Position numbers and translations under genes: made by a program | The notes under the pieces: model-generated | Seen by the model: only the letters and a program-made list of their open reading frames with translations | What the model was told of the DNA's origin: nothing | The model's database searches: none | Source of the DNA: Spizellomyces punctatus DAOM BR117 | Taxonomy: Eukaryota > Chytridiomycota > Chytridiomycetes > Spizellomycetales > Spizellomycetaceae | Length of the DNA stretch: 64,000 nt | Direction of reading: 5' to 3' | NCBI RefSeq assembly: GCF_000182565.1 | Contig: NW_015971539.1 | Coordinates: forward strand, 1,297,219 to 1,361,218 | Shown here: positions 12,391-37,439 of the stretch, piece after piece | Numbering within the stretch: the stretch's first letter is position 1 | How the letters are laid out: every line of letters starts with the position of its first letter

Positions 12391-12392
12391 TA

Positions 12393-12500
12393 GTGCGGAG
12401 CCGATGGGTATTGGCACTAGCACCCGCACCAGGGATTGAACCGGCGACAACCAGTTCGGAAAAGCTAATCTAACTAAACTACGCTACGCTACCGCTGGAA
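12393..12500 (-). repeat. tRNA-like (A-box/B-box) tail and terminal hairpin of Fanzor copy 1
   Basis: On the minus strand, directly at the Fanzor stop, lies an A-box-like TAGCGTAGTTTAGTTA, then a B-box-like GGTTCAATCCC about 30 bases on, then a segment bounded by GTGCGG and CCGCAC (6-bp inverted repeat, 37 bases overall). The same tail occurs at 38233-38326, and similarity between the copies stops right after CCGCACTA, so this marks a real element end. A T-arm-like stem can be drawn, but no acceptor stem matches, so it is not a functional tRNA. Confidence 0.7.
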
Positions 12501-13449: not shown

Positions 13450-13485
13450 GATACAGTGCATCAGATAAGTCATATGCACTGTATC
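13450..13485. repeat. Perfect 11-bp inverted repeat
   Basis: GATACAGTGCA and its exact complement TGCACTGTATC are separated by 14 bases, near the 5' side of the recognisable Fanzor copy 1 coding part. It could be a hairpin in RNA or a DNA binding site. Confidence 0.8.
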
Positions 13486-13490
13486 AGCCG

Positions 13491-13551
13491 GCTTATAATA
13501 TGATATACCCAGCTTATAATATGATATACCCGGCTTATAATATGATATTAA
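13491..13551. repeat. Three 21-bp tandem repeats (GCTTATAATATGATATACCC core)
   Basis: Three consecutive units, the last partial, next to the inverted repeat. They create the ISYYKPG-type peptide repeat in the open frame of Fanzor copy 1, which is probably not genuine protein. Confidence 0.9.
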
Positions 13552-13874
13552 TAAGCCGTATTGAAGTGTTTGCCCAATGCATTGGAGTGTTTCAAAGTGT
13601 TTCAAAGTGTTTCGAGTCTTCCAAGGTGTTTGTCCAAGTCCGGGACTATTGATGAAGGGATGTGCGCATCTACGCCGAAAATTTTCTCTGACATACATGT
13701 AAAGTTTTATGCATCTAATATTTCGCGTGTCCAAACTCCACCTAATTCAAAGTCAACACTGGTTCTAACTTGACATTCACTTCTTCTCAAGACTCCATGG
13801 TTCGTTTCCCTTGGGCGGTTCATTTGGTGATTTTACTTGAGCAAATTCTTGCCACTAGGTTCAAATGCCACACT

Positions 13875-14273
13875 TTATGAAATCACTTTATCTTGGGACT
13901 CCATCTCTCCACCTTCCTTTACTGATGGTACTCGGGAGACCTTCAGTCTCAACACTTTTCGTTGTTTGCGGTAGATTGTGGAAATCTCCATCACTTGGTC
14001 TTCTGTATATCCTGCCTCCATCAGCCCCTGCTTGACGTCATCCACCAAAGCACTTAGCTTCTCCTCTACTAGTGATGCCACATACATATTTGAACCATCT
14101 TCGCCTATGATTGTCCTCACATCCTTCTTAACCATTTTCCTTTCAATTGCCTCCTTTCTACGGCGATTCGTTGTTACGACTGCTTGGTGCATCTCATTGT
14201 CAACTGTGAGTTGGTAGAACCTCTTCATCTCATTTAGCTCTTCTTCACTTGCTCGCCTCATCATTTTCTCCAT
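13875..14273 (-). CDS. Unrecognised small charged helical protein (132 aa)
   Basis: ATG-started frame, rich in Glu, Lys and Arg, predicted helical (MRRASEEELNEMKRFYQL, KLSALVDDVKQGLMEAGY). No domain is recognised and no membrane segment or signal is visible. It is read towards Fanzor copy 1 and lies just inside it. About 110 bases upstream is a palindrome centred on TATCGATA that recurs upstream of the viral fibre gene, which suggests it belongs to the viral segment. It could instead be a remnant of a Fanzor-associated gene. Confidence 0.5.
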   Translation of the reverse strand: MEKMMRRASEEELNEMKRFYQLTVDNEMHQAVVTTNRRRKEAIERKMVKKDVRTIIGEDGSNMYVASLVEEKLSALVDDVKQGLMEAGYTEDQVMEISTIYRKQRKVLRLKVSRVPSVKEGGEMESQDKVIS

Positions 14274-14381
14274 TGTTAATTGCAGCTGTATTCGAATGTT
14301 GTATATGGAATCATTTTTGAAAAGAAGGCTTCGAGCTGGGGAGACCGGTGACCCTCTTTTATAAACGGAAAAGGAACTCTC

Positions 14382-14401
14382 CCATCTTATCGATATGATG
14401 G
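14382..14401. promoter_or_regulatory. Near-perfect palindrome centred on TATCGATA
   Basis: A 20-base site with arms CCATCT/GATGG around TATCGATA and one mismatched pair. It shares nearly the whole sequence with the perfect palindrome at 23107-23128. Each sits 58-110 bases upstream of a minus-strand ORF. A further TATCGATA is at 14465-14472. Confidence 0.55.
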
Positions 14402-14799
14402 CCTTCTTTTATGTCCCATCTGATCCATATGTTTCCTTATGTTTCCTTTGAAGAATAATGATTCTATCGATACTTTCCCTCATATTTCATGTGACCTTTC
14501 TATCAACAGTAACCTTTCGCAAAAAAGGGAAACTAATGGAGATGCTGGAAAAAATCCTAGAACTAGGGCTTTTTCGCAACATGCCCATTTTCGCTCACTG
14601 CTCCACAAAAACAGCTCTAGAATCCTAGCCCTTTTTTTGCCCGGTCTTCTCTACTTTTCAAAAAATTTTCATTTTTTTTTTTCAAAATTGAAATTTGATT
14701 CCATTTGTGAGATTTGACCCGGGAAATGGGCTAGAATGGCTAGGATTCTTGTCTTTCGCTATGTAGGGTATTTTATACTACTAATAAATAAATATATAT

Positions 14800-15252
14800 N
14801 NNNNNNNNNNNNNNNNNNNNNNNNNNNNNNNNNNNNNNNNNNNNNNNNNNNNNNNNNNNNNNNNNNNNNNNNNNNNNNNNNNNNNNNNNNNNNNNNNNNN
14901 NNNNNNNNNNNNNNNNNNNNNNNNNNNNNNNNNNNNNNNNNNNNNNNNNNNNNNNNNNNNNNNNNNNNNNNNNNNNNNNNNNNNNNNNNNNNNNNNNNNN
15001 NNNNNNNNNNNNNNNNNNNNNNNNNNNNNNNNNNNNNNNNNNNNNNNNNNNNNNNNNNNNNNNNNNNNNNNNNNNNNNNNNNNNNNNNNNNNNNNNNNNN
15101 NNNNNNNNNNNNNNNNNNNNNNNNNNNNNNNNNNNNNNNNNNNNNNNNNNNNNNNNNNNNNNNNNNNNNNNNNNNNNNNNNNNNNNNNNNNNNNNNNNNN
15201 NNNNNNNNNNNNNNNNNNNNNNNNNNNNNNNNNNNNNNNNNNNNNNNNNNNN
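14800..15252. other. Assembly gap (453 N)
   Basis: A run of N in the viral segment, preceded by an AT-rich stretch. Reading frames spanning it are meaningless. Part of a gene may be hidden, but the stated length is too short for a polymerase or helicase gene. Confidence 0.99.
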
Positions 15253-15265
15253 TTCACAAAACAGT

Positions 15266-15667
15266 ATGACGAGTTTCAAGGAATTCTTCAATATCACATT
15301 CAGCGCGCCTACGGATGGCTCTCTTCTTATTCCTACAATGGGCTACAATGCTAACTCGGATGAGGAAAGACGAATCGTAGCAATTGTCTTAGACATCATT
15401 AATTTCATCGTGACAAACCCAGAGAAGAGTCCTTATACGAGGGTTCCTTTTGTTGACAACAAAGAAAAAGTGAGAAAATATGGAGAAGAACTTGACGAAG
15501 TTGGAGAGGAAATCGGTGTTGTTGACATGTTGTTCAGCGTCCATAGTTTTCTGATGGAGTGGATAGCTGAATGCAGTCAGCTAGGGAATCCCGACTGGCA
15601 AGCATATCGAGTAGATTTATGTAGTCTGGAGTACCACTGGGATGGGATTGGAGGATGGCAGGCTTAA
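15266..15667 (+). CDS. Unrecognised viral-segment ORF (133 aa)
   Basis: Intact ATG-to-stop frame just after the assembly gap (MTSFKEFFNITF start). The composition is acidic and mixed helical (SDEERRIVAIVLDIINFIV, GEELDEVGEEIGVVDMLF), with a C-terminal aromatic-rich YHWDGIGGWQA. There is no transmembrane helix or known motif. It is followed after 135 bases by another plus-strand ORF with similar base composition, so both may be early or accessory genes of the integrated virus. True upstream extent cannot be judged because of the gap. Confidence 0.5.
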   Translation: MTSFKEFFNITFSAPTDGSLLIPTMGYNANSDEERRIVAIVLDIINFIVTNPEKSPYTRVPFVDNKEKVRKYGEELDEVGEEIGVVDMLFSVHSFLMEWIAECSQLGNPDWQAYRVDLCSLEYHWDGIGGWQA

Positions 15668-15802
15668 GAAAAGTAGAATGGAAGCTGTGGGCATCTGTAT
15701 CGATGATAGCAATGGCCACATGATGTAGAACACGATGTAAAGCGTCATTATTATATAAAGTATCTTAACGTTCACATGTTGGCAGTATTGTATAACTAAA
15801 AA

Positions 15803-16156
15803 ATGTCGTCTGACCAAGAACCTAAACATACAAAGCAGTTCCGATGTGCTTTTTATTCCCAGACTATTTACCGAGCGATAGATGGAATACTCTCTGCGGC
15901 GGATGATGAAGAAGACCATCTCAAGGCTGCACTTGAGGCACTTCAATGGGCGGCTCAACATATTTTCGAATATCCTACACATTTTGAAACTAGTTGGCCT
16001 GGTATGATTCTCTTACTATCTACCACTATAGGAACATATCGTCAAATGCAGCATAAGAGTGAAAAGGAATCATTTGTTGTCGAACAATTAGACTTAATCC
16101 TTCATTGTACTAAGAGTCTATCTAGTTCGATGGATAATGAGGTTGTTGTGTGTTGA
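15803..16156 (+). CDS. Unrecognised viral-segment ORF (117 aa)
   Basis: Intact ATG-started frame (MSSDQEPKHTKQFRC), mostly helical (HLKAALEALQWAAQHIFEY, EQLDLILHCTKSLSSS), with no recognised domain. It shares orientation with the 133-aa ORF before it and converges on the 104-aa ORF that follows, with a hairpin between the two 3' ends. Probably part of the viral accessory set; function unknown. Confidence 0.5.
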   Translation: MSSDQEPKHTKQFRCAFYSQTIYRAIDGILSAADDEEDHLKAALEALQWAAQHIFEYPTHFETSWPGMILLLSTTIGTYRQMQHKSEKESFVVEQLDLILHCTKSLSSSMDNEVVVC

Positions 16157-16315
16157 ATAGAACTGCGGATGAAACATTAGTTTCCAGACCCGTGCATTGC
16201 TGCACAAAAAGCTGTGTTGGCATCTGTGTTTCAGATGCGTGTGGTTTCTTTTTCGTTTCTTTTTGTGGTCAGTCCAACGAAAGAAGCCATGAAAAGGAAA
16301 GGACTGTATGACCCA

Positions 16316-16347
16316 ATGGGGATACAGTTCTCCATCTGCATCCCCAT
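16316..16347. terminator. Hairpin followed by T-run between convergent viral ORFs
   Basis: ATGGGGAT and ATCCCCAT form a perfect 8-bp stem with a 16-base loop, followed by CTTTTT on the plus strand. It lies between the convergent ends of the 117-aa and 104-aa ORFs, a position suited to ending transcripts or stabilising their 3' ends. Confidence 0.5.
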
Positions 16348-16379
16348 CTTTTTATAGAGAAAAAAAAGGGAAGCCGCGT

Positions 16380-16694
16380 TCACGCACTTTCCATCCGCAT
16401 TTCTAGAACAAAGAGCCTTTCATTATGATTGTGTCCTAAGAGAACGCAATCCTGCAAGATGGCCAAGTAGCCGGAATTTCGAAAGCAGATTTCATCCAGT
16501 TTCTTCAAGTGGACGATTGACAAAATCTCTTTGAAGATGTGTTCATTCTGGTCTGTTTTCGGAAGAAACAATATGATACGTTTTTTATCTCCTGTCATCA
16601 TACCTCGACAGTACCTCCAGAATTTATCCATGTCACCCTTCACAGCGTCCTTGATGTTCAATACTGAATGACCTTCAATATCCGCGTGTCGCAT
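16380..16694 (-). CDS. Unrecognised viral-segment ORF (104 aa)
   Basis: Minus-strand frame that follows the fibre gene by about 50 bases in the same direction. It begins MRHADIEGHSVLNIKDAVK and shows a beta-alpha pattern (KKRIILFLPKTDQNEHIFKEI, GYLAILQDCVLLG) that might be a small compact domain. No family is recognised. The 104 codons are free of stops, so it may be a genuine small viral gene. Confidence 0.45.
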   Translation of the reverse strand: MRHADIEGHSVLNIKDAVKGDMDKFWRYCRGMMTGDKKRIILFLPKTDQNEHIFKEILSIVHLKKLDEICFRNSGYLAILQDCVLLGHNHNERLFVLEMRMESA

Positions 16695-16746
16695 TCTTAT
16701 CTTGCATAGCTTCTTTTTTAAATGATGGCAAATGAAGTTCCTTTCT

Positions 16747-19700
16747 TTAAGACCCTAATTCCATTACCTCTATAATGGTTACATCTGCGCTTGTGTCCAG
16801 TGCTGCATTTACTGCTGAAAAATTGGTAAAATATGCTACATCAGGAACTAACCCCGACACAATGAATGAGGCATAAATTGTTCTGTTCACTCCAGCATTA
16901 TAGTTAAAATCACTGGAAAAGACTGACGGCATCGAACTGGCATTAGTTCCTAGATACACATTGAGCGTTCCTCCTGCATTATTGGTGCCATGCAAGTTGA
17001 TGGTATAGCGTATCAACGCCCGGCCGGCTGTAGAAACATAGAACGTCTTTGTTCCGCTACCAGTTGTGATTACATCTTTAGTTAGCATTTTGAACACCTG
17101 AACCTTAGGAAACTGTACTTGAGATGACACCCATGCTTGAGTAGCGCAGACCTGTCCGTTGCTATACACAGCACCATTTGAATACAGATTCCCACCTGAT
17201 ACGACATGGGCACCGACCGCAATTCCACCTGCAACAACCAAAGCGCCAGTTGTACTCGATAACGCTGGAGTGGTGCTTTCAACAACGACATTACCTGTGT
17301 TAGGATAAACGTAAATACCTTTTGCTCCCTGAGATTGAAGGCGTACGGCACCAACGTCATTCCTGAGTGTGAGTGTATTAGCGCCTCCATCTACTGTTCG
17401 ATTTGAGCCATTCATAAAAAGAACGGAAGAACCCACGGCCGTCGTTAAATAGTAAATTGGTGCTGCATTCGAACCGAGGTCTACATTCTTGACCTGAATG
17501 CTTCTTAAACCATTTACACTGGTGTTTCCGATGATGACATCTCTATCAAAATAAGCATTTCTGGTTGCTCCATTAAGCGACATACTTCGAATAGATGCGT
17601 TGCTTTGTCCGACATAGAAATTCAGGTCAACATTGTTACTACCAGGCAAATAGGATTGTATAGAACATATATTTTGTGTTGCGTGTGAAAACATGAGGGT
17701 ATTGGTTTGGCCAACACTATAGTTAGTATTTTGGACGGTCATTTGTGCACCAGAAACCCATAGTTTCTTAGCGATTCCTGCTCCACCCTTCACTTGAAGT
17801 GCTCCAGTGATGGCTGATGTGGAATCAGTTATGTCATTTACAACAAGTGTTCCTGTTGATAATGCGGTACTACTGGATATGGTATCCTGCTTTGATGATA
17901 CTGATGTTTGTAGGGTTGCAACGCTTCCTTGCAGTGCTGATATGCTGGGGGCATAGTCGACAATGTTTAAAATGCTTCGTACTTCGATGTCATTTGTGAG
18001 AGTGAATCCTTGGACATCATCTCCCATGAGAAACATATTGCTCATTGGTGACATCGCAGCGAGAGTAGAGAGTAAAGGACTAGCATTTTGCTTCCCTGAG
18101 ATGTCGACATTCATAACTCCTAGAATTGACTTCACCTCTTCAACGGTTTTCGTGGAGAATGATGTAGCAGAACTTCCAACAATAAATGAATTTGCAGATA
18201 TTGCGAGTCCACTGATAGAATCTAGGAGCGGACTCAATGTCTGTTTTGAAGCAATGGCTGTACCTACATAACTCTCGGTTGCTAGTTTTATACCATTTGA
18301 GAAAACATTTCCACCGACATAAAGCGCTTTACTAATTCCAACTCCCCCTTTGACTTGGAATGCGCCAGTTGTTGTGGAAGTACAATCTGTCGTCGTATTG
18401 ATAATAACATTCCCAGATGAGAGAATATCTAATTGAGATGAACTATTTGTAACACCAAATCTCATGTTAGTATTCCATGCCCGCAGGCAGACATCGTTAA
18501 TCTGATCGTTGAAGAAGGCTTGTCCATTCAAAGATGGGGAGAAGAATGTCATGTCACCAGTATTGACATTTCCACCGATGCTACCCCATCCAAAACCATA
18601 GCCAGTCCCTTTTCCACTGGTTACCTTATTACCAACCCACAGAGTCTTCGCAATTCCAACACCCCCAGATACCTGCAAGGCTCCTGATGTCGCAGACGAG
18701 GAGTCTGTAGCAGTCAACACCTTAACTTCATTCGAAATGGATACAATCTGTAGACCTAATCCTAGACCAGATTTTCCTTGGATGTTCATGTCTCCACAGT
18801 CATTCCAAAGTGTAGCGTTGTTCCCGGCTCCATCTGCAGTCCTTGTAGAAGAGTTGAGGAAAAGTAACGCACCATTGCCGCTGTCATTGGCACAACCAAT
18901 GGCTGTGTAGGCATTAACGCCAGACGAAACGTTTCGAGATTGAACCCAGTTTGGAGCATCCACAGAGGAGTTACCAATTACATTTCCTCCAGCATACAAG
19001 TCCTTTGCAACACCTAAACCACCACTTACTAGAAGTGCTCCTGTAGTCAAACTAGTTGACTGTGTGGTATTTGTAATATATGTAATACCAGTATTAGAAA
19101 TCTTTAACACATAACCGACGTTGTTATATGAAGAGTTGATCCCAAACCCACCTGCTGGGTTAGAGCCATCGGCTGAAGAACCTGCTACTCGAAGACCCCA
19201 AGTGATATTCGATGAAGAGTTGACCAGGGACATATATGTTGGATTGGCACCATTAATTACTGTTACATAACCACTAGCCGTAACTGAGGCAAGACTCAAA
19301 TTAGTTGATGTGGTGATGTTGTTCTGTTTACCAGAAAGGAGTGTATTCACGTTAGCATTGGTTGCTATATTGAGGATGCCTTTCACTTGAGTGGAAGTAA
19401 CATTCTCGAACGTAGTCCCAGCAGAAGAATAAAGCCAACTGTCAGGCTGTACCGTCATTGTGTACAGAGAGTTGGTAGCGCTGTTCATTGGTTGCTTCGA
19501 TGCGAGTGCAGTATTAATGGCATTATTGTTATTAGTAACAGTTGTTGATAGTGAAGACAAGGTTTGACTTATTGGAGCGGTGTTATCAATTACAAATTTT
19601 TGAGATGCAACTTCGAGACCTCCGATGTAAGCCATTCCACCGATATATGCATCAGTTGATACTCCTAGGCCGCCACTCACGACCATATTACCTGATGGGT

Positions 19701-22700
19701 CAATTCAGAACACGTATCCTTTATCTTGGTATGACGAGTAAAAGCCTAATGCTCCAGAAAGTAGGTTTCCATTTGAAGTACCGGAAACATGAACGCCCCA
19801 TGTCTGTGCAGTGCTAGTGTTCCCTAGTGTGAATGCTGTAGCATTGGTGTTTGAATTTTGTACCGTTAAACCGCTCAGGTTAAGCGAACTCGCAGGTGTA
19901 ATCAGGGGCTGATATGTGCTGAGGATTTCATCTTTAGGTACGATCCGGAAAAAACCACCATTTCCCATTAAAAAAGTACCATCGGTCGGGGTCAGACTAC
20001 TTATATTGTCGAGCAAAGGAGATAAGTTTTGCTTCGATGCTAATCCTGTTGTTACAAAGGATTCTGTGGCTACCTTCATATTGGTGGAGGCGAAGATATT
20101 ACCACCAATGAATACATCCTTTGCAATACCAACACCACCAGGACTTACTAGGGAACCGGTTGTTGGAGAGGTTGATACGCTTGTGCTATCCAGTGTAATG
20201 ATACCAGTGTTTGCCTGTATTGTTAGTCCTCTAGCAGTCTGTGCTTGAAGCCGAAGACTGCCTGCATCATTCCTTAATGTCATTGTTGATGCTCCTCCAT
20301 CCACTGTTCGCGAGGCACCGTTCAAAAACATCACTCCAGAACCTCCTGAGGCCGTAAGATAAAGAATGCTACAAGCATTGCTTCCTGAAGAAAGGTTGGA
20401 TACAACCAGCGAACGTAGACCGCTCACAGAAGATGATCCGATAGTAAGGTCACCCCCTACAACGCACGAACCATTTGTGTCCACTCTTAGACCTAGAGTA
20501 GGCATGCTAGATGTCCTAGGATATATGAACATTGGTAAATCCTGAGCACCGAGCCATGTTGAAGCACCGGGGTTGTATCCTAAAAAGCCTGTGCCATCGA
20601 GCCTGAACCAGGTGCTTTTTGTTGAATCAAAACTGTTCGAAATAAAGACAGATGATTGTCCTGCTGATGAGGCGGTAGTTTGAACTCTGCTTCCTGTAAT
20701 GACTTTCCCTGATATATTCACTCCAAATACAACATTATTTGAAGTCAAATTAGTTATCTGTGATGTTGTCCATGGCTGTATCACTTCCATGTTAAAGTCT
20801 CTTAACATTCCCAAGTTGATTGCTTGCTGAGGGTATTCATATTTGATGCCTCGATAACATGAAGGCGTATCAAACAAGAGACGAGTACAACCTCCTATTG
20901 GATCAGAAGCAATTGCGACATTGCTCCCGGGTTCAAGTGGTGGCATGAAGGTAACAGGGTCTATTGGTTCGTAAACGGGGTTTCCATTGCCATCGAGTAT
21001 AGGTTGGCCTTCCGCATCTCGTTGAACCTTACGTTTGCGTGACCCTCCGAAAATCATAGCCCATGGAAATGCACTTGTAATAGGAAGAATTGAATTGACA
21101 GCCATGGGAACCGTAAGAGGAGGACTAGCCATGGCTGGAAAGGGTATAGTTGAAAGAGGGGTAATACTGCTTGCCACCACCACATTTCCATCCGGGATAT
21201 CAGTTTTCAAGATTTCAGCCGTGTCAGTTTGCTCTGTATTGTCTGTATCCCTTTGCTTCGATAATGGCGTAGGGTCAATGAGGGTAAAGTTATAAAGCGG
21301 ATACGAACCTGTAATGATGAGATTTGGACTGTTACTTACAAATTGAGGAGGAATCATGTTATACTGAATCGTATTTCCAACAACAATAATACTTCCATAT
21401 GAGTTGGTACTGCCCACATAATTACCTCTTAAGGAATCGCCTACGCAAAGAACGGTATCACTTCCTGTAAGTGAACATGAAATCAAGTCGCCGCTGACTT
21501 GTACACCATTTATACCTCGGAGATTAGTAGATAGAATGGCACCGTTCTTCTGGAGGCCTATCCCGGCTGCTATATTAGAACTTAAAACCCTGTTGTTGAG
21601 GGTTAAATCTGGAGACTGGGCTGTTAACGACAGCCTATAATTGTTGCCCACCCGTGTTACCCCTTGGGAGGCTGTGAATGTATCCCGTATGGTACCCCTG
21701 TTTACCATGGCCAAACCGCTGTTAGCATCAACTTTTAGATCGAGTTGAAGGTCATTCTGTACTCTCTCGATACCATTGCTGCAAGTCAGTACATCTTTAA
21801 TGGTATCTGCTTTGACCATTTGGAGACAACTGCCAGCCTTGCATTTAAGAGATAATACCACATCATTGGTCGTTCCAGGTCGAATAGATACGCCATTAAA
21901 GTCCTGAAAAATGTACCCACCTGTGAGTGCATTTCCAACAATTCTGATGGTCTGATTATCGACCAAACAGCCTATCTCTCGACGTCCAGCAGCCTCCGGA
22001 CTCACGGCGATTGCTCCTGTTTGAGAGCCTTGATAAAATTGTGAAAGATAGTCTTTACTTACAGCATACGAGCCACCTCCAATCGCAGGCAATGTTCCGC
22101 TTAACTTTACATTGGGTACACGCAACTCCTGAAGCGTGGACGAATAGGTGAATGAAGAACTTCCCGAGTAGCCATAAGTAAGGTTCCCATACATGATTTG
22201 TTCATATCCGGGTGATTTCAGGGACAATCTCGATCCCGCTTGACTGAATGTCGAAGAATCGACCATTAAGCGTATTGCTGTGGTGTCTACCTCTCCTAAC
22301 ACATTAGTCATTTCGGTCAGACTACCAAATCCAAAGTCGAGCCATGAAGACCTGATGTCTAACAGCGTATCCGCACTGCTGGATGTCTTTATAGCCCCAA
22401 ATGCTTTGAACAGTTGGCTTGAGTTTGTTTCGAGTTCATCTGAACTATTCACCTTCAAACTCTTGTGAAGTTTGACACCAATTCCATTATCCCGATATAG
22501 AGGTTTCTTCAGTGTTTCTAGAGGCGGCGGTGGTGGAAAGTTCACTGAAAGTCCGTTTTCGTTAATGGATAATGTCTCATCCACTCTAATACCAACCGTC
22601 CATGATTCATCATCATGGTACATTGGGAACTCATAATTTTCGGGAATCACTTTCAGTTTTTCTTCTTCTACAGATAAAGATGAATCATCAAACTGAAGTT

Positions 22701-23049
22701 GGATATCATGACCCTCTTTTGAGTAGACAAGAGGTTGATGCGCAGATATGTCGATTGTGGTCAACTGACTCTCCTCATCAATTTCAAGCCTCTTGTTATC
22801 AACATTTAATCCAATGGATATGACGCCATGTTCATTCATACAAGGTAAGCATTCAGAGGTGGTTTCAACCTCGTTGACTTTAAGTTCACCATTTTCATTA
22901 GATAAATGCTTAAATTCTCCAACATCGAACCCCTTTATCTTGGCTCCAGCATCGAAGCCAACCATTTCGCCTGTCACATATGGAGATAAGAGATTTGTGT
23001 TATCTACGGTATGTAACCCCGTAGAAGTTCTACTATTAATTCCAGACAT
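16747..23049 (-). pseudogene. Very long fibre-like virion protein, one in-frame TGA
   Basis: Two open frames (23049-19705 and 19686-16747) are in the same phase, separated only by one TGA at 19707-19705 and six sense codons, so together they are one gene of about 2,100 codons. The N-terminal third has short beta pseudo-repeats (SLSVEEEKLKVIPENYEF, ETLSINENGLSVNF) like adenovirus-type fibre shafts. The rest has at least six modules of the form TTGAL.V.GG.GIAK.L.VGGN, interleaved with FMNGS.RTVDGG..T and ATESYV...ASKQ units, as in tail-fibre-like proteins of phages and large DNA viruses. A beta-rich C-terminal domain ends in VTIIEVMELGS. Presumed receptor-binding spike. In an internal copy the residue matching the TGA is Lys (GYVLKIS versus GYVF-stop-ID). 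The gene is either recently inactivated or makes two products. Confidence 0.72.
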
Positions 23050-23106
23050 GTTATATTGTAGCTAGGAAGTAAAATTTGAGGAGCTTGGCAAAAGTGCTCG
23101 AGGGTG

Positions 23107-23128
23107 CCCATCTTATCGATAAGATGGG
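23107..23128. promoter_or_regulatory. Perfect 22-bp palindrome upstream of the fibre gene
   Basis: Each half is CCCATCTTATC, joined at the centre of TATCGATA. It starts 58 bases upstream of the fibre-gene ATG and directly after the end of the proline-rich pseudogene. The shared core with 14382-14401 suggests a binding site, or a combined terminator/promoter hairpin, of the virus. Confidence 0.6.
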
Positions 23129-23139
23129 ATGATAAAACC

Positions 23140-24572
23140 TTACGATATCTTCTGTTTCTTCCTCGGTGGAAGTGTGACATCCTCTGCTCCTTTTCTCCTT
23201 CTACTTCGAACTGTAGGTTCCACACGCAGTGTCGATTGTGTTTGTGCAGGAGGGACAACATATTCCGCTTCACGTTGTCCTCGCAATCTTGTGAGTGGAC
23301 GTACTTCACTTCCCAAGTCCGCGGTTAGCGGTACTAACGTTGGAGGATTGACAGCAACATTCGGAGGTGCTGGTGCAAAATTGACTTTTCTCCTATTTTT
23401 GGCTCATATATGTTTTTCAACTTCTTCAGGGGATGTTAATCTAATTTCCTCTACTTCCTCTCGTTCGGGTATAGAAGAATCTATTCTTTGTCTTTTTACC
23501 GTGGTCTGCTTATCATCTGGTTGTTTGTACTGTCTTCTTTTGGTTCCATGAGGAGCAACTCCAGCAAAAATCACATCCGGTGGTGGAGTTACTGGCTCTG
23601 TTTTTTGCTTCTTTTTGTTTAATCGAGGAATCGGCGGGGGTGCATTTGCTTTCCTTTTGGAACCTGCTAATATGGTTGCTTCCTTACCTTTGAAGTGAAA
23701 TGGAGTTCTAGCAGGAACCAGGATAAATTTTTCATTGACGGAGTTCTCTCTAAAACATCCGCTACACCAGACGGATCATGGCGGTCATTCAGGAGTACTG
23801 TATCATGCGGAATTGGTGCGGCACTACGAGGCATTGTTTCCATGGAGGCATCGATTTGAGGAGATTCCACATGAACCTCTGGAGTCAAGCCAGGGAAACT
23901 GCCTGGAATCGGTGGAATATAAGCATCGGCCATTGTCATCGCATCCAATGGAACAGCAGCGCCAGTCCCATGATTGACATGGTCATTTCCAACTGCATCT
24001 CGTCTAATTTCTGTCTCCCTTGTTAGAATTACAGGTTCTAGGGGAGTAGAATTTACATTACGTGGCTGTGCTGGAATCTCATTTCCATTAGGTGGTGCTT
24101 CAAACATTAAGCCCGTTTGGGAAGTCACTGATGCGGGATAGGAAAACACATGCCCCGATTCATCAGGAATCGGTAATCCTGAAAGGGAATTTTGCGTTCC
24201 AACAGTTAGAGCGTTCCCTCGACGACTTGGTGTAATAGAATCAAGATACTTCTGTTTCTTCCTGTAATCTTCCTCTGCTTTAACATATTCAAGACCGTCC
24301 CTGTAAGCCTTGGTAGTTCGTTGGGCAGCCGATAATTTCAGAACATCAGAAGATGAGAGCCTCGGTTCATATTTCGGTGCTGCATAGTTCGTCTTTGTTG
24401 CTAGGTCTTTCTCATGGACATTGCGGTTCCACGAATAGACAACTTGTGGTCGTCCGAGGATATCAATCTTTGAATAGTCTAGTGCGACACCCACTTGACG
24501 TTTTTGCAGATTTGGAATCGGTGGCGAAATAGCATATGTATCACTCAAGTAATTGGCTCGGTAATATGCCAT
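23140..24572 (-). pseudogene. Proline-rich viral protein, frameshifted and with one TGA
   Basis: The frame opens at ATG 24572 (MAYYRANYLSDTYAISPP) and runs 301 codons, but the last ~25 codons look non-coding. Moving to the adjacent frame at an A-run near 23,725-23,732 continues a coherent Pro/Lys/Arg-rich sequence (e.g. KRKANAPPPIPRLNKKKQK), crosses one TGA at 23406-23404, and ends PPRKKQKIS-stop at 23140. So one gene of about 475 codons carries a one-base frameshift and one nonsense codon. It contains an amphipathic piece (EDYRKKQKYLDSITPSRRG) and long disordered regions; the basic tail could bind DNA or localise to the nucleus. No family is recognised. Its position between MCP and fibre genes suggests a minor virion or scaffold protein. 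Confidence 0.6.
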
Positions 24573-24637
24573 ACTAGGTTTTTTCCTTTGCTATGTAGAG
24601 CTGAAAAAATAATATCTCTTCTGTTCTATAAATCAAG

Positions 24638-24934
24638 ATGCCTAATTGGTTTTCTAAAGCGAAAGCAAAGGCAAATGTTCTGTGGAATAACGCACCGTCA
24701 TATGTTGCCAAAGCAAGGAACTTTGCTAATCAAGCAGTCCGGCACGCCACCACATTGAATAAACACGTGCAGCACGTAAATCGCCAAGTACAAGAGTCAC
24801 CACTTTTCTCAGCAGGAGTCCGAGAGAAAAGTCAAAAGATTTCTAGTCATGGAGACACTGGGCTGAGGAAACTTACAGAACTTCACAAGAACGCTGACGA
24901 CTTTGTTGAAAGAGTGACTGGGAAAATTGAATGA
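24638..24934 (+). CDS. Small basic amphipathic viral protein (98 aa)
   Basis: Intact ATG-to-stop frame on the strand opposite to its neighbours, divergent from the proline-rich gene across 65 AT-rich bases and convergent with the MCP gene. The N-terminus is an aromatic/basic amphipathic helix (MPNWFSKAKAKANVLWNNA), followed by helical, Ala/Gln/His-rich sequence (NFANQAVRHATTLNKHVQHV) and an acidic/basic tail. Size and composition resemble small internal or membrane-active virion proteins of polinton/adenovirus-type viruses, but this is only a resemblance. Confidence 0.55.
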   Translation: MPNWFSKAKAKANVLWNNAPSYVAKARNFANQAVRHATTLNKHVQHVNRQVQESPLFSAGVREKSQKISSHGDTGLRKLTELHKNADDFVERVTGKIE

Positions 24935-25012
24935 ACATATTTGTTTAGGCTGGTTGTTCAAGAAGCAGTAAGAAGCTAGAGCTTTATGTAGACGACAAGC
25001 TGGGAATTAAAA

Positions 25013-25027
25013 CATCTCAAAAAGATG
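25013..25027. terminator. Small hairpin between convergent ends of the 98-aa ORF and the MCP gene
   Basis: CATCT-CAAAA-AGATG, a 5-bp stem with 5-base loop, followed by A-runs on the plus strand. It uses the same CATCT/AGATG arms seen in the TATCGATA palindromes. Weak on its own. Confidence 0.35.
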
Positions 25028-25048
25028 GGAAAAAATGCCAAGGCAGCC

Positions 25049-26302
25049 TTAGACCACAGTCACGACCACACCAATGCTTAAAGTGACATTTTCGTGGTAG
25101 CACGTTACCATACGCACCTTTTGCGTAGGTGCAACAGCATGTTGCATATGTACTCTTAATAAACCGTCTGTCCCTGTAAAACTCAATGCCGCCTGACTGC
25201 CTTCATCCTTGCTGGCAAAACTCCATCCAAATGAAAAGGCTTTTGAATCATAGTCGGCGAACGACATATCCATCTCCCCGAGTTGGTCAAAGTTGTTATT
25301 TGATAACTGTGTGACCAGTAACGTTTGATTATCAGATGGGCTATGGCTGAACCCTTGCGTTCCACTTGGAATGGTAAGATTTGCCCCCAATTGAATTCGC
25401 CACTCGCGAAGCCCTTGTGAAGAATACATTAGCGCCTTATCTTTCGTCTGGTCATTGAGAACATCATCGTCCACAAACGACATTTCGATCCCTTGAAGTG
25501 ACCTTACACCACTCATATGAAGCAAAAATGTATTCCGGTTTCCGCCACTACATGCGTTTTCCGTTTGGGTTGAGCGCACATAGTCATAGAATATTGGCTT
25601 TCCATCACTTATAGCGCGTGTTGAATTGATGACACTGCTTGGTGGTGGTGTCACATACGAAATCAAAGTCCTGATATTTGATACTCTAATCTCTCCAACT
25701 CCAGCCGATGTAAAGACGGTTGAAGGATCCGCAAGCGTGATTATGATTTCGAGTGCTTGATTTGGAAGTGCCCAAACAGGGAAGAACTGGTCATTTGTCA
25801 GATGAAAGAAACCCACAAAAGGGTGATGGTTGATGGAGATGGTACTCGATGTTGCAAAGATATTGGTGTTTCCATATCCGGAAAGTTGGCTCAACAATTT
25901 CTTACTACCAGCAGATAGATTGCGGTACGTTTGTACTAGATAAAGAGGATAGTTTGGTATATTGACAACTGTTTCTCCTCCTGCTTTGATGGTCAATGAT
26001 TGAATAATGGATTCCAAGCCAAGATACGTGTTTTTAACACCTGTACCAGGAGTTATCAGGTTCCCTGCATTATCATATGCAGAAACATCCATTGACAGAA
26101 TTAGTTTCTGCAAAATGAAAGAGACCGAATTCGAGTTGCAAGTGATCTTAATCGGAGTCAGGTTTCTTGACTTTGTCGTATATGTACTTTGACCTATCGG
26201 AGAATAGATTGACACCCCCTCACCGCGAGGATCGGAGTAACTTTTGGCGAAGGAATTTGTTGAGAAGATCCAGTTACGTGGTACAGCAACTTCTTCTGAC
26301 AT
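25049..26302 (-). CDS. Major capsid protein, probable double jelly-roll type of a polinton-like virus
   Basis: Intact 417-residue frame with ATG at 26302. The whole protein is beta-rich with Asn/Gly/Ser loops and no signal or membrane helix, the look of a double jelly-roll capsid protein. Landmarks include YLGLESIIQSLTIKAGGETV, FFPVWALPNQALEIIITLAD (PNQ.L in the first roll), GGNRNTFLLHMSGVRSLQGI, GLREWRIQLGANLTIPSG, FSFGWSFASKDEGSQAALSF and a C-terminal ENVTLSIGVVVTVV strand. Length is within the range known for PLV/virophage MCPs. The assignment rests on composition and on neighbouring packaging ATPase and penton-like genes, not on a search. A structure prediction showing two stacked eight-stranded rolls would settle it. 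Confidence 0.68.
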   Translation of the reverse strand: MSEEVAVPRNWIFSTNSFAKSYSDPRGEGVSIYSPIGQSTYTTKSRNLTPIKITCNSNSVSFILQKLILSMDVSAYDNAGNLITPGTGVKNTYLGLESIIQSLTIKAGGETVVNIPNYPLYLVQTYRNLSAGSKKLLSQLSGYGNTNIFATSSTISINHHPFVGFFHLTNDQFFPVWALPNQALEIIITLADPSTVFTSAGVGEIRVSNIRTLISYVTPPPSSVINSTRAISDGKPIFYDYVRSTQTENACSGGNRNTFLLHMSGVRSLQGIEMSFVDDDVLNDQTKDKALMYSSQGLREWRIQLGANLTIPSGTQGFSHSPSDNQTLLVTQLSNNNFDQLGEMDMSFADYDSKAFSFGWSFASKDEGSQAALSFTGTDGLLRVHMQHAVAPTQKVRMVTCYHENVTLSIGVVVTVV

Positions 26303-26344
26303 CTTTGTTTACTGATTGCAGGAAAAAAAAAAATGGAAGATTTT

Positions 26345-26755
26345 TCAGCCAAAAATACCACCATAGTTGTCCTCCTCAACATTGTCCTCCTCAAAGAATG
26401 GTGATCTAGAGTCAAAGAATGGTTCATCATCACCGAATTTCAAAATTACGCTCTTTTTTTTAGATGGACGTATTGCTGCTGGCTGCGCCTTTGCTGCTGG
26501 TTTGGATCTCTTGCTCCTAGTTGGTGTTGGTGTTGGTGTTGGTGTTGCCTTCTTTCCTCGCTTCGTGTTTTGTCGTTCTTCCCTCGCCAACCGCTTCTGT
26601 TCCTTCTCCTCTTCAAGGATGCGTTTGGCCTCATCGATCCTCCTTTGTTTATCCTGCTCCTTCCGTTCCTTCTCGCGTTTTGCTTGCATTAGGCGCAATT
26701 GTTCAGCCCTCGCTTTCTGCGCCTTCTCCAATGCAGCCCGTTGCTTGTCCGTCAT
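26345..26755 (-). CDS. Highly charged coiled-coil/Lys-rich viral protein
   Basis: Minus-strand frame upstream of MCP in the same direction. The first half is a long single alpha-helix or coiled coil (QRAALEKAQKARAEQLRLMQ, RIDEAKRILEEEKEQKRL), followed by a TPTPTPTPTRSKR hinge, a basic stretch (KPAAKAQPAAIRPSKKKS) and an acidic C-terminus (FFEEDNVEEDNYGGIFG). The ATG at 26755 (MTDKQ) is the first available, but the frame stays open upstream to a TAA next to the assembly gap and has a plausible Pro/Glu-rich composition, so the N-terminus may extend into the gap. Basic body and acidic tail suggest a DNA-condensing core or scaffold protein; no family is recognised. Confidence 0.5.
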   Translation of the reverse strand: MTDKQRAALEKAQKARAEQLRLMQAKREKERKEQDKQRRIDEAKRILEEEKEQKRLAREERQNTKRGKKATPTPTPTPTRSKRSKPAAKAQPAAIRPSKKKSVILKFGDDEPFFDSRSPFFEEDNVEEDNYGGIFG

Positions 26756-26885
26756 CGGGCGTTTCACCTTTTGCTTTGGAGGCTGTTCTGGTATAATTTC
26801 TGCTTTTTGAACAGGTGCTTGTTCAGCGGGTGGTTCTACATTATCTTGTGGAACGGCACTCGATTCTTGATGATTTTGATTTTAC

Positions 26886-27054
26886 NNNNNNNNNNNNNNN
26901 NNNNNNNNNNNNNNNNNNNNNNNNNNNNNNNNNNNNNNNNNNNNNNNNNNNNNNNNNNNNNNNNNNNNNNNNNNNNNNNNNNNNNNNNNNNNNNNNNNNN
27001 NNNNNNNNNNNNNNNNNNNNNNNNNNNNNNNNNNNNNNNNNNNNNNNNNNNNNN
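26886..27054. other. Assembly gap (169 N)
   Basis: A run of N that cuts the 3' end of the penton-like gene and possibly the 5' end of the coiled-coil gene. Sequence just left of the gap fits the coiled-coil protein better than the penton frame, so the true junction lies inside the gap. Confidence 0.99.
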
Positions 27055-27681
27055 GAATTCGATTTTGGAGATAGTGTCATCAACAGGGAGCCATTCACCT
27101 CTGTCGTTAGTCCACGTGACTACATCGCCGAAACTATCAGGGACAACCGCAGCAATTACGGATTGGGCGGAATCATTGAAGTCACTGAGGAAACGGCTTC
27201 CTTGGACTTGGATGTTGCTTGTGACAAGCATTGGATACGAACCGGACAAATTGACAGCATTCTTCAGTGTGATAGTCTTGTAATATCCCGTTTCACTCCA
27301 TCTTGACATTCCTGTTAGAAGATAAGAGGATGTTCCTCTCGAAGCGGCAAGAACCTTGAAGTTCTTGCTACCAGATGTGGAAAGTGTCAATCTCCTCATA
27401 ACAGAGTTGTATGTGGCATTGTAGGCTTGTGTCCCGGCTGAACTCAACGCTTGAGCAATGGCATTTGGAAAATTTGCTATGCTGTAGTTACCATTAGGTA
27501 TTTTCGCAGATAAGATGGTTGGATCGCCTTCTTCAACAAAATTAATCGTGTTATTAGAATCGTTGACCAGATCCCAATCTTGAAGGAAAGAAACCGAGAG
27601 AACCTTCATCATTTCCATCCTCCGAGGAGGTATTGAGAATGATCGAGACTTTAAGGAGCAGTATGTCACTTCGTTAATCAT
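27055..27681 (-). CDS. Minor capsid (penton-type) protein, 3' end lost in the gap
   Basis: ATG at 27681; about 209 codons are readable before the gap (MINEVTYCSLKSRSFSIPPRR). The pattern GNYSIANFPNAIAQALSSAG ... YNATYNSVMRRLTLSTSG ... KNFKVLAASRGTSSYLLTGM is typical of penton/minor capsid proteins of polintons and PLVs: a 'time to discretise' strand-helix followed by a beta hairpin and an L.G. motif. Later SNIQVQGSRFLSDFNDSAQSVIAAVVPDSFGD and WLPVDDTISKIEF fit a single jelly roll. It diverges from the ATPase gene by 41 bases. Presumably occupies five-fold vertices and anchors the fibre. The apparent continuation past the gap to 26836 is not trustworthy. Confidence 0.62.
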
Positions 27682-27722
27682 GATATTTCCTTACCTTTAT
27701 GTAAAGACAAAGGAAAATTTAA
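27682..27722. promoter_or_regulatory. Short divergent promoter between minor capsid and ATPase genes
   Basis: Only 41 bases, strongly AT-rich, separate the two divergent ATGs, with TTTCCTTA and its near complement TAAAGACAAAGGAAA on either side. Both genes must be driven from this stretch or from within each other. Confidence 0.5.
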
Positions 27723-28328
27723 ATGTCCTATAAACCACGCCCAATCTTTCCCGTAGGGAAAAAGAAGAGAGATCCTCGTGTTCCACGTGACCTGGCATCA
27801 CTGCCTCTATGTACAACTCTTGTCGCTCCGAGGAAAAGTGGTAAAAGTGCATTAGTCTGCGGTCTGATTGAGGATGTCTATGCTAAATTACACGATCGAG
27901 TCATTATCATGTCCGACACAGTTGAATATGATGCTTCTGTGAAGGTACTGGCCGAAACCACAAAACATAAAAATATCTACTTTACAGACGAGGTTTCCAA
28001 TGCATCCATCGCTAAAATAGTAGAAGAACAGAAGAAAACGCCTGAGAAGTCACTTCTATTATTCATTGACGACGCTGGTGATTCTGCGCAAAGTAAAGAA
28101 CTCAACAAGGAGTTATCGAAACTCTATACAAAAGGGAGGCATTTCAATATAGGAAATATTGTAGCCATCCAGAGTGTAACCGGACAACTTTCATGTAAAA
28201 TGAAGAACTGCACCACTGAGTGGGTGGTGTTTAAAAACAATGCAGAGGACATGAAACTTTCAGCAAAGTTACTTGCTTCCGCCTACAAAGATGATAAAGA
28301 AGTTCTAACATTTCTCACCGAGTTGTAG
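27723..28328 (+). CDS. FtsK/HerA-type (A32-like) DNA packaging ATPase
   Basis: A 201-residue P-loop ATPase expected to pump viral DNA into capsids. Walker A is APRKSGKSALVCGLI (GxxxSGKS-like, about residues 34-48). Walker B is SLLLFIDDAGDSAQS with the Asp-Asp pair. A downstream sensor-like segment NIGNIVAIQSVTGQLSCKMKNCTTEW fits the A32/packaging family (..Q....R..). The size is near the short end for PLV ATPases. The last codons TTG-TAG overlap the outer end of the chromovirus LTR (LTR starts 28324), so the native C-terminus may have been replaced by retrotransposon sequence. Confidence 0.82.
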   Translation: MSYKPRPIFPVGKKKRDPRVPRDLASLPLCTTLVAPRKSGKSALVCGLIEDVYAKLHDRVIIMSDTVEYDASVKVLAETTKHKNIYFTDEVSNASIAKIVEEQKKTPEKSLLLFIDDAGDSAQSKELNKELSKLYTKGRHFNIGNIVAIQSVTGQLSCKMKNCTTEWVVFKNNAEDMKLSAKLLASAYKDDKEVLTFLTEL

Positions 28329-28923
28329 CGGATTTTTTGTTGGTAGACTACGGTAAAGACAACTTGGGTCTCCTAGCAGGTTGTGTGGGTGTCCGTACTA
28401 GGAATCGTAGTCTCCAAATCCTTTCTTTGGGCGTCGGTAGCGACTTGGGGGCGAGAGGCAAGGAGAGTCGGTTAGTTGTGAACCGAGCAGGATTTAGAGG
28501 CTTCGGTACGGGTGATCAGGCCGTTGAAGCGCTCTGTTAGGTTCCTGTTAACCTAAGATTGGAGTTGAGAAGCGAGTTATGGGGATTTTGTGTCGCTACG
28601 GCTTCTGCCCCCGACTTATTTTATTGAATACCTCCTTTTTATACAAGATTCTTGGATAAACTGTTAAACTAAACTAAACTAATGGGTGTCGCTGCACCGC
28701 AACTGATTTATTGGTGGCGGTACCGATCTCTTCCTTTTCCGCACTGGCTCGGGCCTCCACAGGTTGTACGAGGCACGCTGAAATCTAATGCGCCAATTGC
28801 CATTCTCCGAACCGGTTTTTTCGGTCGCGGTAACCCAATCGGTGGAGTTGGTCACGCGATTCGTGCTTCCCGCGTCCGATTTGGGCTTACTCGCGATCTC
28901 TCGAAGACGTCCTCGTCGTTACA
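28324..28923 (-). repeat. 3' LTR of the chromovirus
   Basis: A 600-bp direct repeat of 36615-37214, ending in TGTAAC on the minus-strand 5' side and GCTACA (GTTACA in the partner) on the other, the usual TG..CA form. About seven substitutions were seen between the LTRs, three of them CG to CA. Just inside (28924-28933) is the purine tract AAAGGGGGGA on the minus strand. Confidence 0.95.
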
Positions 28924-28933
28924 TCCCCCCTTT
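28924..28933 (-). promoter_or_regulatory. Polypurine tract of the chromovirus
   Basis: AAAGGGGGGA directly abutting the TGTAAC start of the 3' LTR on the minus strand; primes plus-strand DNA synthesis in LTR retroelements. Confidence 0.85.
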
Positions 28934-28980
28934 GAAGAGCCAACACACCGGCGCTCCGAGCGGGGGTGTTGGGACGTCAA

Positions 28981-37347: not shown

Positions 37348-37439
37348 AGGACCTCTCTGAGGCCGCTCAAAGGGAGAACAAGTAGTAACCAAGTCTTCCC
37401 TAGTTTTCTGTTGTCTTCTTGTCCCTGCTAGCCTGTTAC

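What the first reader, a model, noticed from the sequence alone, without database searches (positions are those of the whole stretch)
13875..28328. Integrated polinton-like virus: structural genes in a fungal chromosome
A capsid-like protein, penton-like protein, packaging ATPase with clear Walker A/B motifs, coiled-coil core-like protein, giant fibre and several orphan ORFs lie together without introns between intron-rich fungal genes. The MCP and ATPase frames are open. Polinton-like viruses are known mainly from algae and protists; a fibre-bearing one in a zoosporic fungus would be noteworthy. Sequence shows the motifs; family placement is inference.
Basis: partly seen in the sequence, partly recalled or inferred. 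Interest (0 to 1): 0.87.

Follow-up and report, generated by a model that had tools for sequence, protein, structure and literature searches.

The report
Broken virus copy in chytrid chromosome
A chromosome of the soil chytrid fungus Spizellomyces punctatus holds the structural half of an integrated polinton-like DNA virus, one of several copies lodged inside other mobile elements, whose attachment fibre seems to have been traded with a second, very different virus lineage in the same genome.

Summary
Window 13449-28322 is the structural half of an integrated polinton-like virus (PLV): fibre, capsid and penton candidates, A32-type ATPase, one terminal repeat. The host is Spizellomyces punctatus (200 of 200 residues of its solved Fanzor found). 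A PLV in this fungus is already in print (PMC7805220): the kind is known. The copy is broken: Ty3 cuts the ATPase, the fibre has a stop, a third gene a frame shift; the capsid frame is open. The left end lies in a Fanzor gene; the matching other end (same 5-bp target, repeat 98.7% identical) is on contig C21, so one insertion is split over two contigs, by rearrangement or assembly error.

Beyond the finding: six capsid loci show dN/dS 0.07-0.20; 12 of 12 element ends read lie in other mobile elements; 8 of 11 tips computed are 44-50-bp palindromes; two integrases carry chromodomains. A second lineage, with family B polymerase at 3 of 7 loci, shares the fibre's distal part with the PLVs but not its capsid-side tail, suggesting exchange of attachment modules. 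The capsid fold was not confirmed.

The parts
12391..13448 (-). C-terminal half of a Fanzor gene (the integration target); 91.8% DNA identity to the Fanzor at C17:397633-398679; its own frame breaks at 12709
13449..14034 (.). left terminal repeat of the virus; starts TGATACAGTGCA, 13-bp palindromic arms in the first 38 bp (shorter than the 20-24-bp arms of most sister tips), 21-bp tandem repeats at 13491-13548; from 13488 it matches C21:318914-319461 at 98.7% (over the first 352 bp, other matches longer than 200 bp are 76-92%; shorter pieces range from 75% to 97-100% at C5, 99 bp, and C11, 55 bp)
13875..14273 (-). 132-aa frame beside the terminal repeat, unknown function; relatives beside the terminal repeat of C22 (96%), C3:673833 (98%) and C8 (73%)
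14800..15252 (.). run of N (gap or withheld); not probed
15266..15667 (+). 133-aa frame, unknown; 96% at C3:672640
15803..16156 (+). 117-aa frame, unknown; 81% at C8:629699
16380..16694 (-). 104-aa frame, found in C16, C22, C3, C8 (66-98%) and, in two pieces, C15; unknown
16747..19686 (-). distal part of the fibre gene (979 aa), repeats; begins in the same frame 18 nt after the end of the proximal part
19705..23049 (-). proximal part of the fibre gene (1114 aa): capsid-side tail, adenovirus-type shaft repeats (Pfam Av_adeno_fibre 2.1e-5, above cut-off; the C22 copy falls just below it). Ends in a stop where the C15 copy reads open into the distal part
23667..24572 (-). 301-aa frame, unknown structural-region gene; frame shift near residue 276 relative to the C3, C15, C16 and C22 copies, the 3' part of the gene lies in another frame
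25049..26302 (-). major capsid protein candidate, 417 aa, open; six loci in the genome counting this one
26345..26767 (-). 140-aa Lys/Glu-rich frame; 90-91% in C15, C16, C22 and 81% over its first 53 residues in C8 (C3 reads N there)
26836..27681 (-). minor capsid (penton) candidate; contains a run of N (26886-27054); relatives 76-97% in three A copies (C16, C22, C8) and 33-34% in the second lineage (C15, C8)
27723..28322 (+). A32-type packaging ATPase, cut after 200 residues by the Ty3 element (three other copies have 234-252-aa open frames)
28323..37214 (-). Ty3/gypsy-type retrotransposon (2519-aa frame; RT, RNase H, integrase, chromodomain); LTRs 28323-28923 and 36614-37214, 98.8% identical; flanking 5-mers differ (no duplication)
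37215..37441 (.). fragment of another repeat, 97% to C22:23365-23594
37442..38328 (+). second, decayed Fanzor C-terminal piece with in-frame stops, opposite orientation; not part of the virus

Best explanation
The window holds one half of a polinton-like virus of a lineage without a detected family B polymerase, which integrated, by a retroviral-type (rve) integrase making 5-bp target duplications, into a Fanzor mobile element of Spizellomyces punctatus. Shown: gene content, the target gene, a complementary end on contig C21, five sister insertions, purifying selection on the capsid gene between copies. Inferred: intact relatives form particles (capsid and penton, DNA packaged by the A32-type ATPase, a fibre on the penton binding the fungal cell, most plausibly the wall-less zoospore), enter, and insert into silent repeat-rich chromatin, guided by the integrase chromodomain. 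This particular copy is dead as a unit: the right half (integrase, replication genes, second terminal repeat) is not joined to it, Ty3 cuts its ATPase, the fibre has a stop and another gene a frame shift. The insertions measured are young, the lineages are old: the diversity was made before integration and the genome was invaded repeatedly. I saw no sign that the host has put the genes to use, but expression could not be tested.
For: Capsid gene at 6 loci, none with a stop in the matched part (the C8 match starts at residue 25); dN/dS 0.07-0.20 in 15 of 15 pairs, dS 0.09-1.5. ATPase Pox_A32 3.6e-7; penton candidate with a second-lineage relative at 33-34%. Homology of the window Fanzor half ends at C17:398679, that of the C21 Fanzor half at C17:398675, each followed by a virus end; CTCGC at both junctions; terminal repeats of window and C21 98.7% identical over 548 bp. 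Sister copy C16 (387543-411987): two terminal repeats with 4 mismatches and 2 gap openings over 1452 columns, CCGCC on both sides, in a Fanzor; genes include an rve integrase with chromodomain, a response regulator and primase/helicase-type proteins. C8 (606098-632130): ACGTC on both sides, in an element with RVT_2, integrase with chromodomain. Ty3 in the ATPase.
Against: The capsid fold is not shown: AlphaFold2 on six rows gave mean pLDDT 29.5, the penton candidate alone 39.2; neither has a significant Pfam, PHROG, NCBIfam or PDB sequence match (capsid; penton: 74, 91, 69, 68; PDB hits at E 0.18 and 0.9-1.4 only). Seven scans of IMG/VR found no relative, so no free virus is linked to it here. 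The C3/C21 split sits at near-identical 8.9-kb Ty3 copies whose flanks are not reciprocal, so an assembly error is as possible as a real rearrangement. Insertion inside repeats may be survival bias rather than targeting, and the share of repeats in this genome was not measured. CpG depletion is not shared by the Ty3 (o/e 1.08).
Confidence: 0.86

Rival explanations
1. It is a classical polinton (Maverick), i.e. an element with family B polymerase plus rve integrase, of which only the structural half is left.
For: Such a lineage is present in the same genome: seven loci with another capsid gene, a PF03175 match about 5 kb from three of them, rve integrase at C15; it shares the fibre's distal part with the window copy.
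Against: The window copy belongs to the other capsid lineage; its ATPase and penton candidate are only 28-34% identical to the polinton-type ones. Its sisters carry primase/helicase-type genes: DUF5906 in C16, Prim-Pol and D5_N in C21 and C15. None of the 7 PF03175 matches lies near the six A loci; N stretches hide parts, and weak matches can be missed.
Confidence: 0.07
2. The structural genes are kept by the fungus for its own use (domesticated capsid or an antiviral reserve against giant viruses, as proposed for protist PLVs).
For: The six capsid frames are open and under purifying selection.
Against: dS between copies is 1 or more in 8 of 15 pairs while terminal repeats within the three insertions measured differ by 0.3-1.1%: the selection acted before integration. 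In the window copy fibre, a third gene and ATPase are broken. CpG o/e is 0.66-0.74 in the element against 0.90-0.93 in the flanks, which may mean silencing, though the Ty3 is not depleted (1.08). Expression was not testable.
Confidence: 0.05
3. Window and C21 ends are two independent insertions at the same base of two Fanzor copies, not one split element.
For: Some integrases have hot spots; Fanzor is a frequent target here (4 of 12 ends). The C21 tip lacks the palindrome that the window tip partly keeps.
Against: The C16 insertion is at another place of Fanzor. The two terminal repeats match each other at 98.7% but other long matches only at 76-92%, as expected for the two repeats of one element.
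Confidence: 0.1
4. Piece of a giant virus, a virophage or a contaminating phage rather than a PLV.
For: A32-type ATPases and phage- or adenovirus-like fibres also occur in such viruses (recalled).
Against: Element length 24.4-26.0 kb between tips, with terminal repeats and target duplications (C16, C8), is far below a giant virus; the capsid protein has no match in the phage collection (the one protein tried); element flanks are mobile elements of the same genome.
Confidence: 0.04

Closest known systems
Spizellomyces punctatus PLV and the 'S. punctatus group' (Bellas and Sommaruga 2021, PMC7805220; sections 5 and 7 read, passages elsewhere)
   Same: Same host species; integrated PLV; terminal repeats and 5-7-bp duplications in part of the integrated elements described there.
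   Different: One element is reported there for this fungus; here 6 capsid loci of one lineage and 7 of another are listed. Whether the published element is one of these could not be checked (supplementary tables not readable here). A chitinase, found in 52% of that group, was not seen in the frames given to Pfam.
Polintons / Mavericks
   Same: rve integrase, terminal repeats, A32-type ATPase, short target duplication (5-6 bp for mavirus and polintons per a passage of PMC8547959); the second lineage (B) here has PolB matches and rve.
   Different: The window lineage (A) has primase/helicase-type replication genes and no PolB seen.
Cryptophyte PLVs with avian-adenovirus-type fibre domains (PMC12220804; passages read)
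   Same: Large modular fibres with Pfam PF06536, nested retrotransposons, 5-6-bp duplications.
   Different: No endosialidase chaperone domain was found in the four fibre frames scanned here; fibre exchange between a PolB-bearing and a PolB-less lineage was not in the passages I read.
Endogenous virophages of Cafeteria (EMALEs) with Ngaro retrotransposons (PMC8547959; passages read)
   Same: Virus elements cut by retrotransposons; one case of an element inside a retrotransposon; duplications mostly 3-5 bp.
   Different: There no evidence for sequence-specific integration was found (passage); here 12 of 12 readable ends are inside other mobile elements.
Fanzor SPu-1 / SpuFz1 of S. punctatus (PMC3627910 passages; PDB 8gkh)
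   Same: The interrupted target gene is of this family; 200 of 200 residues given of the solved protein found in this genome.
   Different: It is the target, not part of the virus.

Membership tests
Polinton-like virus (PLV) | A32-type packaging ATPase | tested here: met
   Pox_A32 3.6e-7, above the Pfam cut-off
Polinton-like virus (PLV) | double-jelly-roll major capsid protein | tested here: inconclusive
   417-aa conserved protein in the right place; structure model mean pLDDT 29.5, no significant sequence match
Polinton-like virus (PLV) | penton / minor capsid protein | tested here: inconclusive
   relatives in the second lineage at 33-34%, E 1e-14 to 3e-14; the C15 one has only a weak DUF5901 hit (0.0027, below cut-off); model pLDDT 39.2
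Polinton-like virus (PLV) | terminal inverted repeats and short target duplication | tested here: met
   for sister copies C16 and C8; for the window one repeat only, its likely partner on C21
Polinton-like virus (PLV) | genome of 14-40 kb (range from the abstract of PMC12220804) | tested here: met
   24.4 kb (C16) and 26.0 kb (C8) between tips; the window copy itself is truncated to 14.9 kb
Polinton (Maverick) | family B DNA polymerase (protein-primed type) | tested here: not met
Lineage B: match about 5 kb from 3 of 7 capsid loci
Polinton (Maverick) | rve integrase | tested here: met
   C16 and C8 sister copies, rve 6.1e-11 and 8.9e-12, each with a chromodomain; not in the window copy, whose right half is missing
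S. punctatus group of PLVs | capsid protein in that group's cluster | not testable with these tools
   reference sequences of that group are not held as such; pattern scans of IMG/VR with both capsid proteins found nothing
Virophage (Maveriviricetes) | virophage-type capsid protein | tested here: inconclusive
   no significant Pfam, PHROG or PDB match; sensitive profile comparison not run
Fanzor (target gene) | sequence of a proven Fanzor nuclease | tested here: met
   the C17 relative of the window piece matches PDB 8gkh over all 627 residues given

The most novel reading that the evidence does not exclude
S. punctatus is or recently was infected by two very different capsid lineages, a PolB-less PLV and a polinton-type virus, that meet in the same cell and trade the outer part of one long adenovirus-type fibre while each keeps its own capsid-side tail; that is, receptor-binding modules circulate between a PLV and a polinton as tail fibres do among phages. 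The PLV, lacking a family B polymerase, may copy its ends through self-pairing palindromic tips (hairpin telomeres), and its chromodomain integrase places it in the silent chromatin of older mobile elements.
Probability: 0.4. Interest if true: 0.72.

Novelty: new member of a known kind. Interest (0 to 1): 0.5.

Why it matters
Capsid-bearing double-stranded DNA viruses of fungi are hardly known as infections (recalled); integrated copies with a selected capsid gene and young insertions say that such viruses infected a laboratory chytrid not long ago. The shared fibre with different tails makes it testable whether PLVs and polintons meet in one cell as particle-forming viruses, a long-standing question about polintons. 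The nesting in Fanzor, Ty3 and a copia-type element, with a chromodomain on the integrase, gives a concrete case of a virus that may use silent chromatin as a landing place.

Tried and rejected
Structure of the capsid candidate and of the penton candidate: both models too poor, so no fold search was made. Relatives in IMG/VR: seven pattern scans gave 2, 1, 0, 6, 3, 5 and 5 stretches that matched a pattern and no confirmed relative; the method needs exact short peptides, so this does not show absence. Phage collection, capsid protein only: no match. Second-lineage capsid against PDB: none at E 5.

A simple reciprocal exchange between the window Ty3 and the C21 Ty3 was tested by their flanking 5-mers and rejected: none of the four flanks match. 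That the 12709-13734 frame is one protein was rejected: its first ~95 residues are terminal repeat, the rest Fanzor. The inverted Fanzor pieces on both sides of the window element looked like long inverted repeats of the virus; they are two separate Fanzor pieces, the right one behind Ty3 and another repeat fragment. The name 'TVpol' for the C16 824-aa protein is recalled and not used as a finding: only its helicase part has matches (DUF5906 1.2e-18, PDB 6k9e 'Primase' 1.2e-11). The C16 434-aa helicase call is weaker (DUF5906 2.5e-5, below cut-off).

Results against the tidy picture: the C15 locus is composite, its two ends have different tip types and its Ty3 flanks match places 2.8 kb apart in the Ty3, so its TCATT/TCATT flanks (with a one-base boundary choice) are weak evidence. 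C20/C22 flanks agree at 4 of 5 bases only. The window and C21 Ty3 copies have no target duplication. C16 and C15/C21 differ in replication genes, so 'one lineage' holds for the structural genes only. The fibre comparison by blocks used one second-lineage fibre (C15) in full and a short piece of another (C8).

Full report
Observation. The reported span holds a block of long frames on the minus strand followed by one on the plus strand, with lower GC than the flanks. The 417-aa frame at 25049-26302 occurs at six places, none with a stop in the matched part: the window, C3:661770, C22:9376, C15:28303, C16:397409 and C8:623751 (there from residue 25). Pfam finds Pox_A32 in the 27723-28322 frame (3.6e-7) and the avian adenovirus fibre family in the 19705-23049 frame (2.1e-5); the other seven of nine proteins scanned had nothing above cut-off. 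PHROGs finds phage head-protein families weakly in the distal fibre (3.8e-5, 0.0011) and a terminase in the ATPase (3.1e-7).

Host. The target gene beside the element has a relative at C17 that matches the Fanzor of Spizellomyces punctatus solved as PDB 8gkh; 200 of the 200 residues of that protein that I gave are found at C17:213846. The host is S. punctatus or something indistinguishable from it at this gene. The genome has 23,997,880 bases in 29 contigs.

Anatomy. Left end: DNA homology to the Fanzor at C17 stops at 13448 and homology to the terminal repeats of the C3 and C22 copies starts there. The tip reads TGATACAGTGCA and has 13-bp palindromic arms. Then follow small frames (13875, 15266, 15803, 16380), the fibre in two frames, an unknown 301-aa frame, the capsid candidate, a charged 140-aa frame, the penton candidate and the ATPase. 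At 28323 a Ty3 element starts (RT, RNase H, integrase, chromodomain), its LTRs 98.8% identical over 600 bp (7 mismatches). Beyond it lie another repeat fragment and a decayed Fanzor piece. Integrase, replication genes and second terminal repeat of the virus are not in the window.

How broken. The ATPase stops after 200 residues at the Ty3, against open frames of 234-252 in three others. The fibre's proximal frame ends at 19705 and reopens in the same frame 18 nt later, where the C15 copy is open across. The 301-aa frame shifts near residue 276; the rest of the gene is readable in another frame. The penton candidate holds a run of N. The capsid frame is intact.

The other end of the same insertion. 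On C21 homology to the N-terminal half of Fanzor ends at the base that corresponds to C17:398675 and a virus end follows; in the window the Fanzor homology ends at C17:398679. Both junctions have CTCGC (one search prints the C21 boundary one base off, which I corrected by eye). The C21 terminal repeat matches the window's at 98.7% over 548 bp, 6 mismatches; in the search with the first 352 bp, other matches longer than 200 bp have 76-92%, shorter pieces 75-100%. C21 continues with a relative of a 199-aa C15 frame, an 833-aa protein with Prim-Pol and D5_N, and a RING protein cut by another Ty3. So one insertion appears to lie on two contigs. Neither Ty3 has a target duplication and their flanks are not reciprocal; rearrangement and assembly error both remain possible.

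Sister insertions. C16 is unmasked and runs from 387543 to 411987: terminal repeats with 4 mismatches and 2 gap openings over 1452 columns, CCGCC on both sides, in a Fanzor. Besides structural genes it has an rve integrase with chromodomain, an unknown 364-aa protein, a response regulator, a 434-aa protein with DUF5906 below cut-off and an 824-aa protein with DUF5906 well above it. C8 runs from 606098 to 632130, ACGTC on both sides, inside a retrotransposon with RVT_2 on one side and rve and gag-pre-integrase on the other (I call it copia-type from recalled knowledge of RVT_2); its terminal repeats differ by 4 of 1065, 0 of 131 and 1 of 108 in three pieces and its integrase has a chromodomain. 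The end of C20 and the start of C22 flank what looks like one insertion in a Ty3 (CCCGC and CCTGC). C3:674710 abuts a Ty3 relative. C15 lies between Ty3 pieces. A short tip on C25 abuts a Ty3. In all, 12 of 12 ends whose flank could be read (window, C21, C16 two, C15 two, C22, C20, C3, C8 two, C25) are inside another mobile element: 4 Fanzor, 6 Ty3, 2 copia-type; not readable: the left end of the C3:661770 copy (N), C5:368881 (tip lost), C11:899350 (55 bp, not examined). The share of mobile elements in the genome was not measured. Palindromes were computed for 11 tips: 8 have arms of 20-24 bp, 44-50 bp in all (C16 two, C15 two, C22, C3, C8 two), the window 13 bp, C20 and C21 none; the C25 tip shows one by eye. 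The sequence differs between tips while the pairing is kept.

Age and selection. Between the six capsid genes dN/dS is 0.07-0.20 in 15 of 15 pairs, dS from 0.09 to 1.5, 8 of 15 at 1 or more (simple counting method, near saturation at the high end). Terminal repeats of the three insertions measured differ by 0.3-1.1% in substitutions. So the lineages diverged long ago as functional genes and integrated lately and repeatedly. Part of the difference between close copies is CpG change (19 of 48 differences between window and C3 copies), and CpG o/e is 0.66-0.74 in the element against 0.90-0.93 in the host flanks, but 1.08 in the Ty3; methylation was not tested.

A second lineage and a shared fibre. 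A different capsid gene occurs at seven loci (nine matches, three of these seven loci with a stop). About 5 kb from three of them is a PF03175 match (C9:338743, C1:847162, C22:303556) and the C15 one has an rve integrase: a polinton configuration. Its ATPase is 28-30% and its penton candidate 33-34% identical to the window's. Yet a relative of the window's proximal fibre lies within about 12 kb of 7 of 7 of these capsid genes (at C5 only distal pieces of 51-52%). In the one detailed comparison, residues 1-50 and 51-100 of the window fibre are 14% and 20% identical to the C15 second-lineage fibre, 101-250 are 48-74%, and 251-600 are 80-100%; among four first-lineage copies the first 50 residues are 86-96% identical to the window's, and the C15 first-lineage copy is 81% over residues 1-215. 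The short C8 second-lineage piece has the same tail as the C15 one. Over about 430 codons of the distal part the C15 second-lineage fibre differs from the six first-lineage fibres by dS 0.23-0.81 (lowest: C3), while the window fibre differs from the five other first-lineage ones by dS 0.47-2.07. The simplest reading is exchange of the outer fibre between lineages that keep their own capsid-side tails.

How it works (inferred). From the recalled roles of these families: the A32-type ATPase packages DNA; the fibre sits on the penton and binds the cell; rve integrases join element ends to staggered cuts, here 5 bp. Chromodomains on integrases of Ty3-type elements steer insertion to heterochromatin (recalled; a paper of that title is in the reference list of PMC8547959). 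The PolB-less lineage might replicate its ends through the palindromic tips; this is a guess from sequence.

Prior work. PMC7805220 (sections 5 and 7 read) reports one integrated PLV in S. punctatus, a group named after it, and PLV genes in Allomyces. PMC10120064 excluded fungi from its genome download (passages). PMC12220804 (passages) has adenovirus-type fibres and nested retrotransposons in cryptophyte PLVs. PMC8547959 (passages) has virophage-retrotransposon nesting. PMC3627910 (passages) has the Fanzor prototype from this fungus. In the listings of nine searches, of which I saw titles and abstract starts, I noticed no paper on fibre exchange between a PLV and a polinton, on palindromic PLV tips or on PLVs inside Fanzor; supplementary tables and most subscription papers were out of reach.

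Verdict. A real, integrated, partly broken PLV of a known kind in a host already known to carry one; the census, the nesting, the split insertion and above all the shared fibre are the parts worth following.

Noticed in passing
C16:403807-404421 (L006); C15:22293-22811: These PLV copies carry a response-regulator receiver protein (Pfam 8.1e-21), 91% identical between the two (the C15 one with a stop); the other matches in the genome are 27-38%.
   Followed up: partly
C15:29644-30375 (L015): An HNH plus AP2 protein, of homing-endonuclease type, follows the capsid gene in the C15 copy.
   Followed up: no
C21:325122-326416 (L029): RING-finger protein gene in the right part of the virus, cut by Ty3.
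   Followed up: no
C15:17826-20324 against C21:321608-324106: Prim-Pol/helicase gene open in C21, with two TGA stops in C15, while C16 has other replication genes: replication modules differ among copies with the same structural genes.
   Followed up: partly
genome-wide Fanzor copies: In the listed rows that match the Fanzor part (query residue 88 onward), 27 of 29 in-frame stops are TGA by my hand count, as CpG decay of CGA would give.
   Followed up: no
C20:404315-405129 and C22:1-22912: The end of one contig and the start of another fall inside what looks like one virus insertion in a Ty3, so these contigs may be neighbours.
   Followed up: partly
C2:160957-172663: PF03175 match and fibre relatives without a listed capsid match of either lineage: perhaps a third lineage.
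   Followed up: no
window 57004-57136: 67-bp tandem duplication, two copies with 100% matches, in the host flank.
   Followed up: no
window 14800-15252 and 26886-27054; stretches of C3, C8, C15, C21, C22: Runs of N fall inside virus copies; gap or withheld cannot be told, and counts are lower bounds.
   Followed up: no
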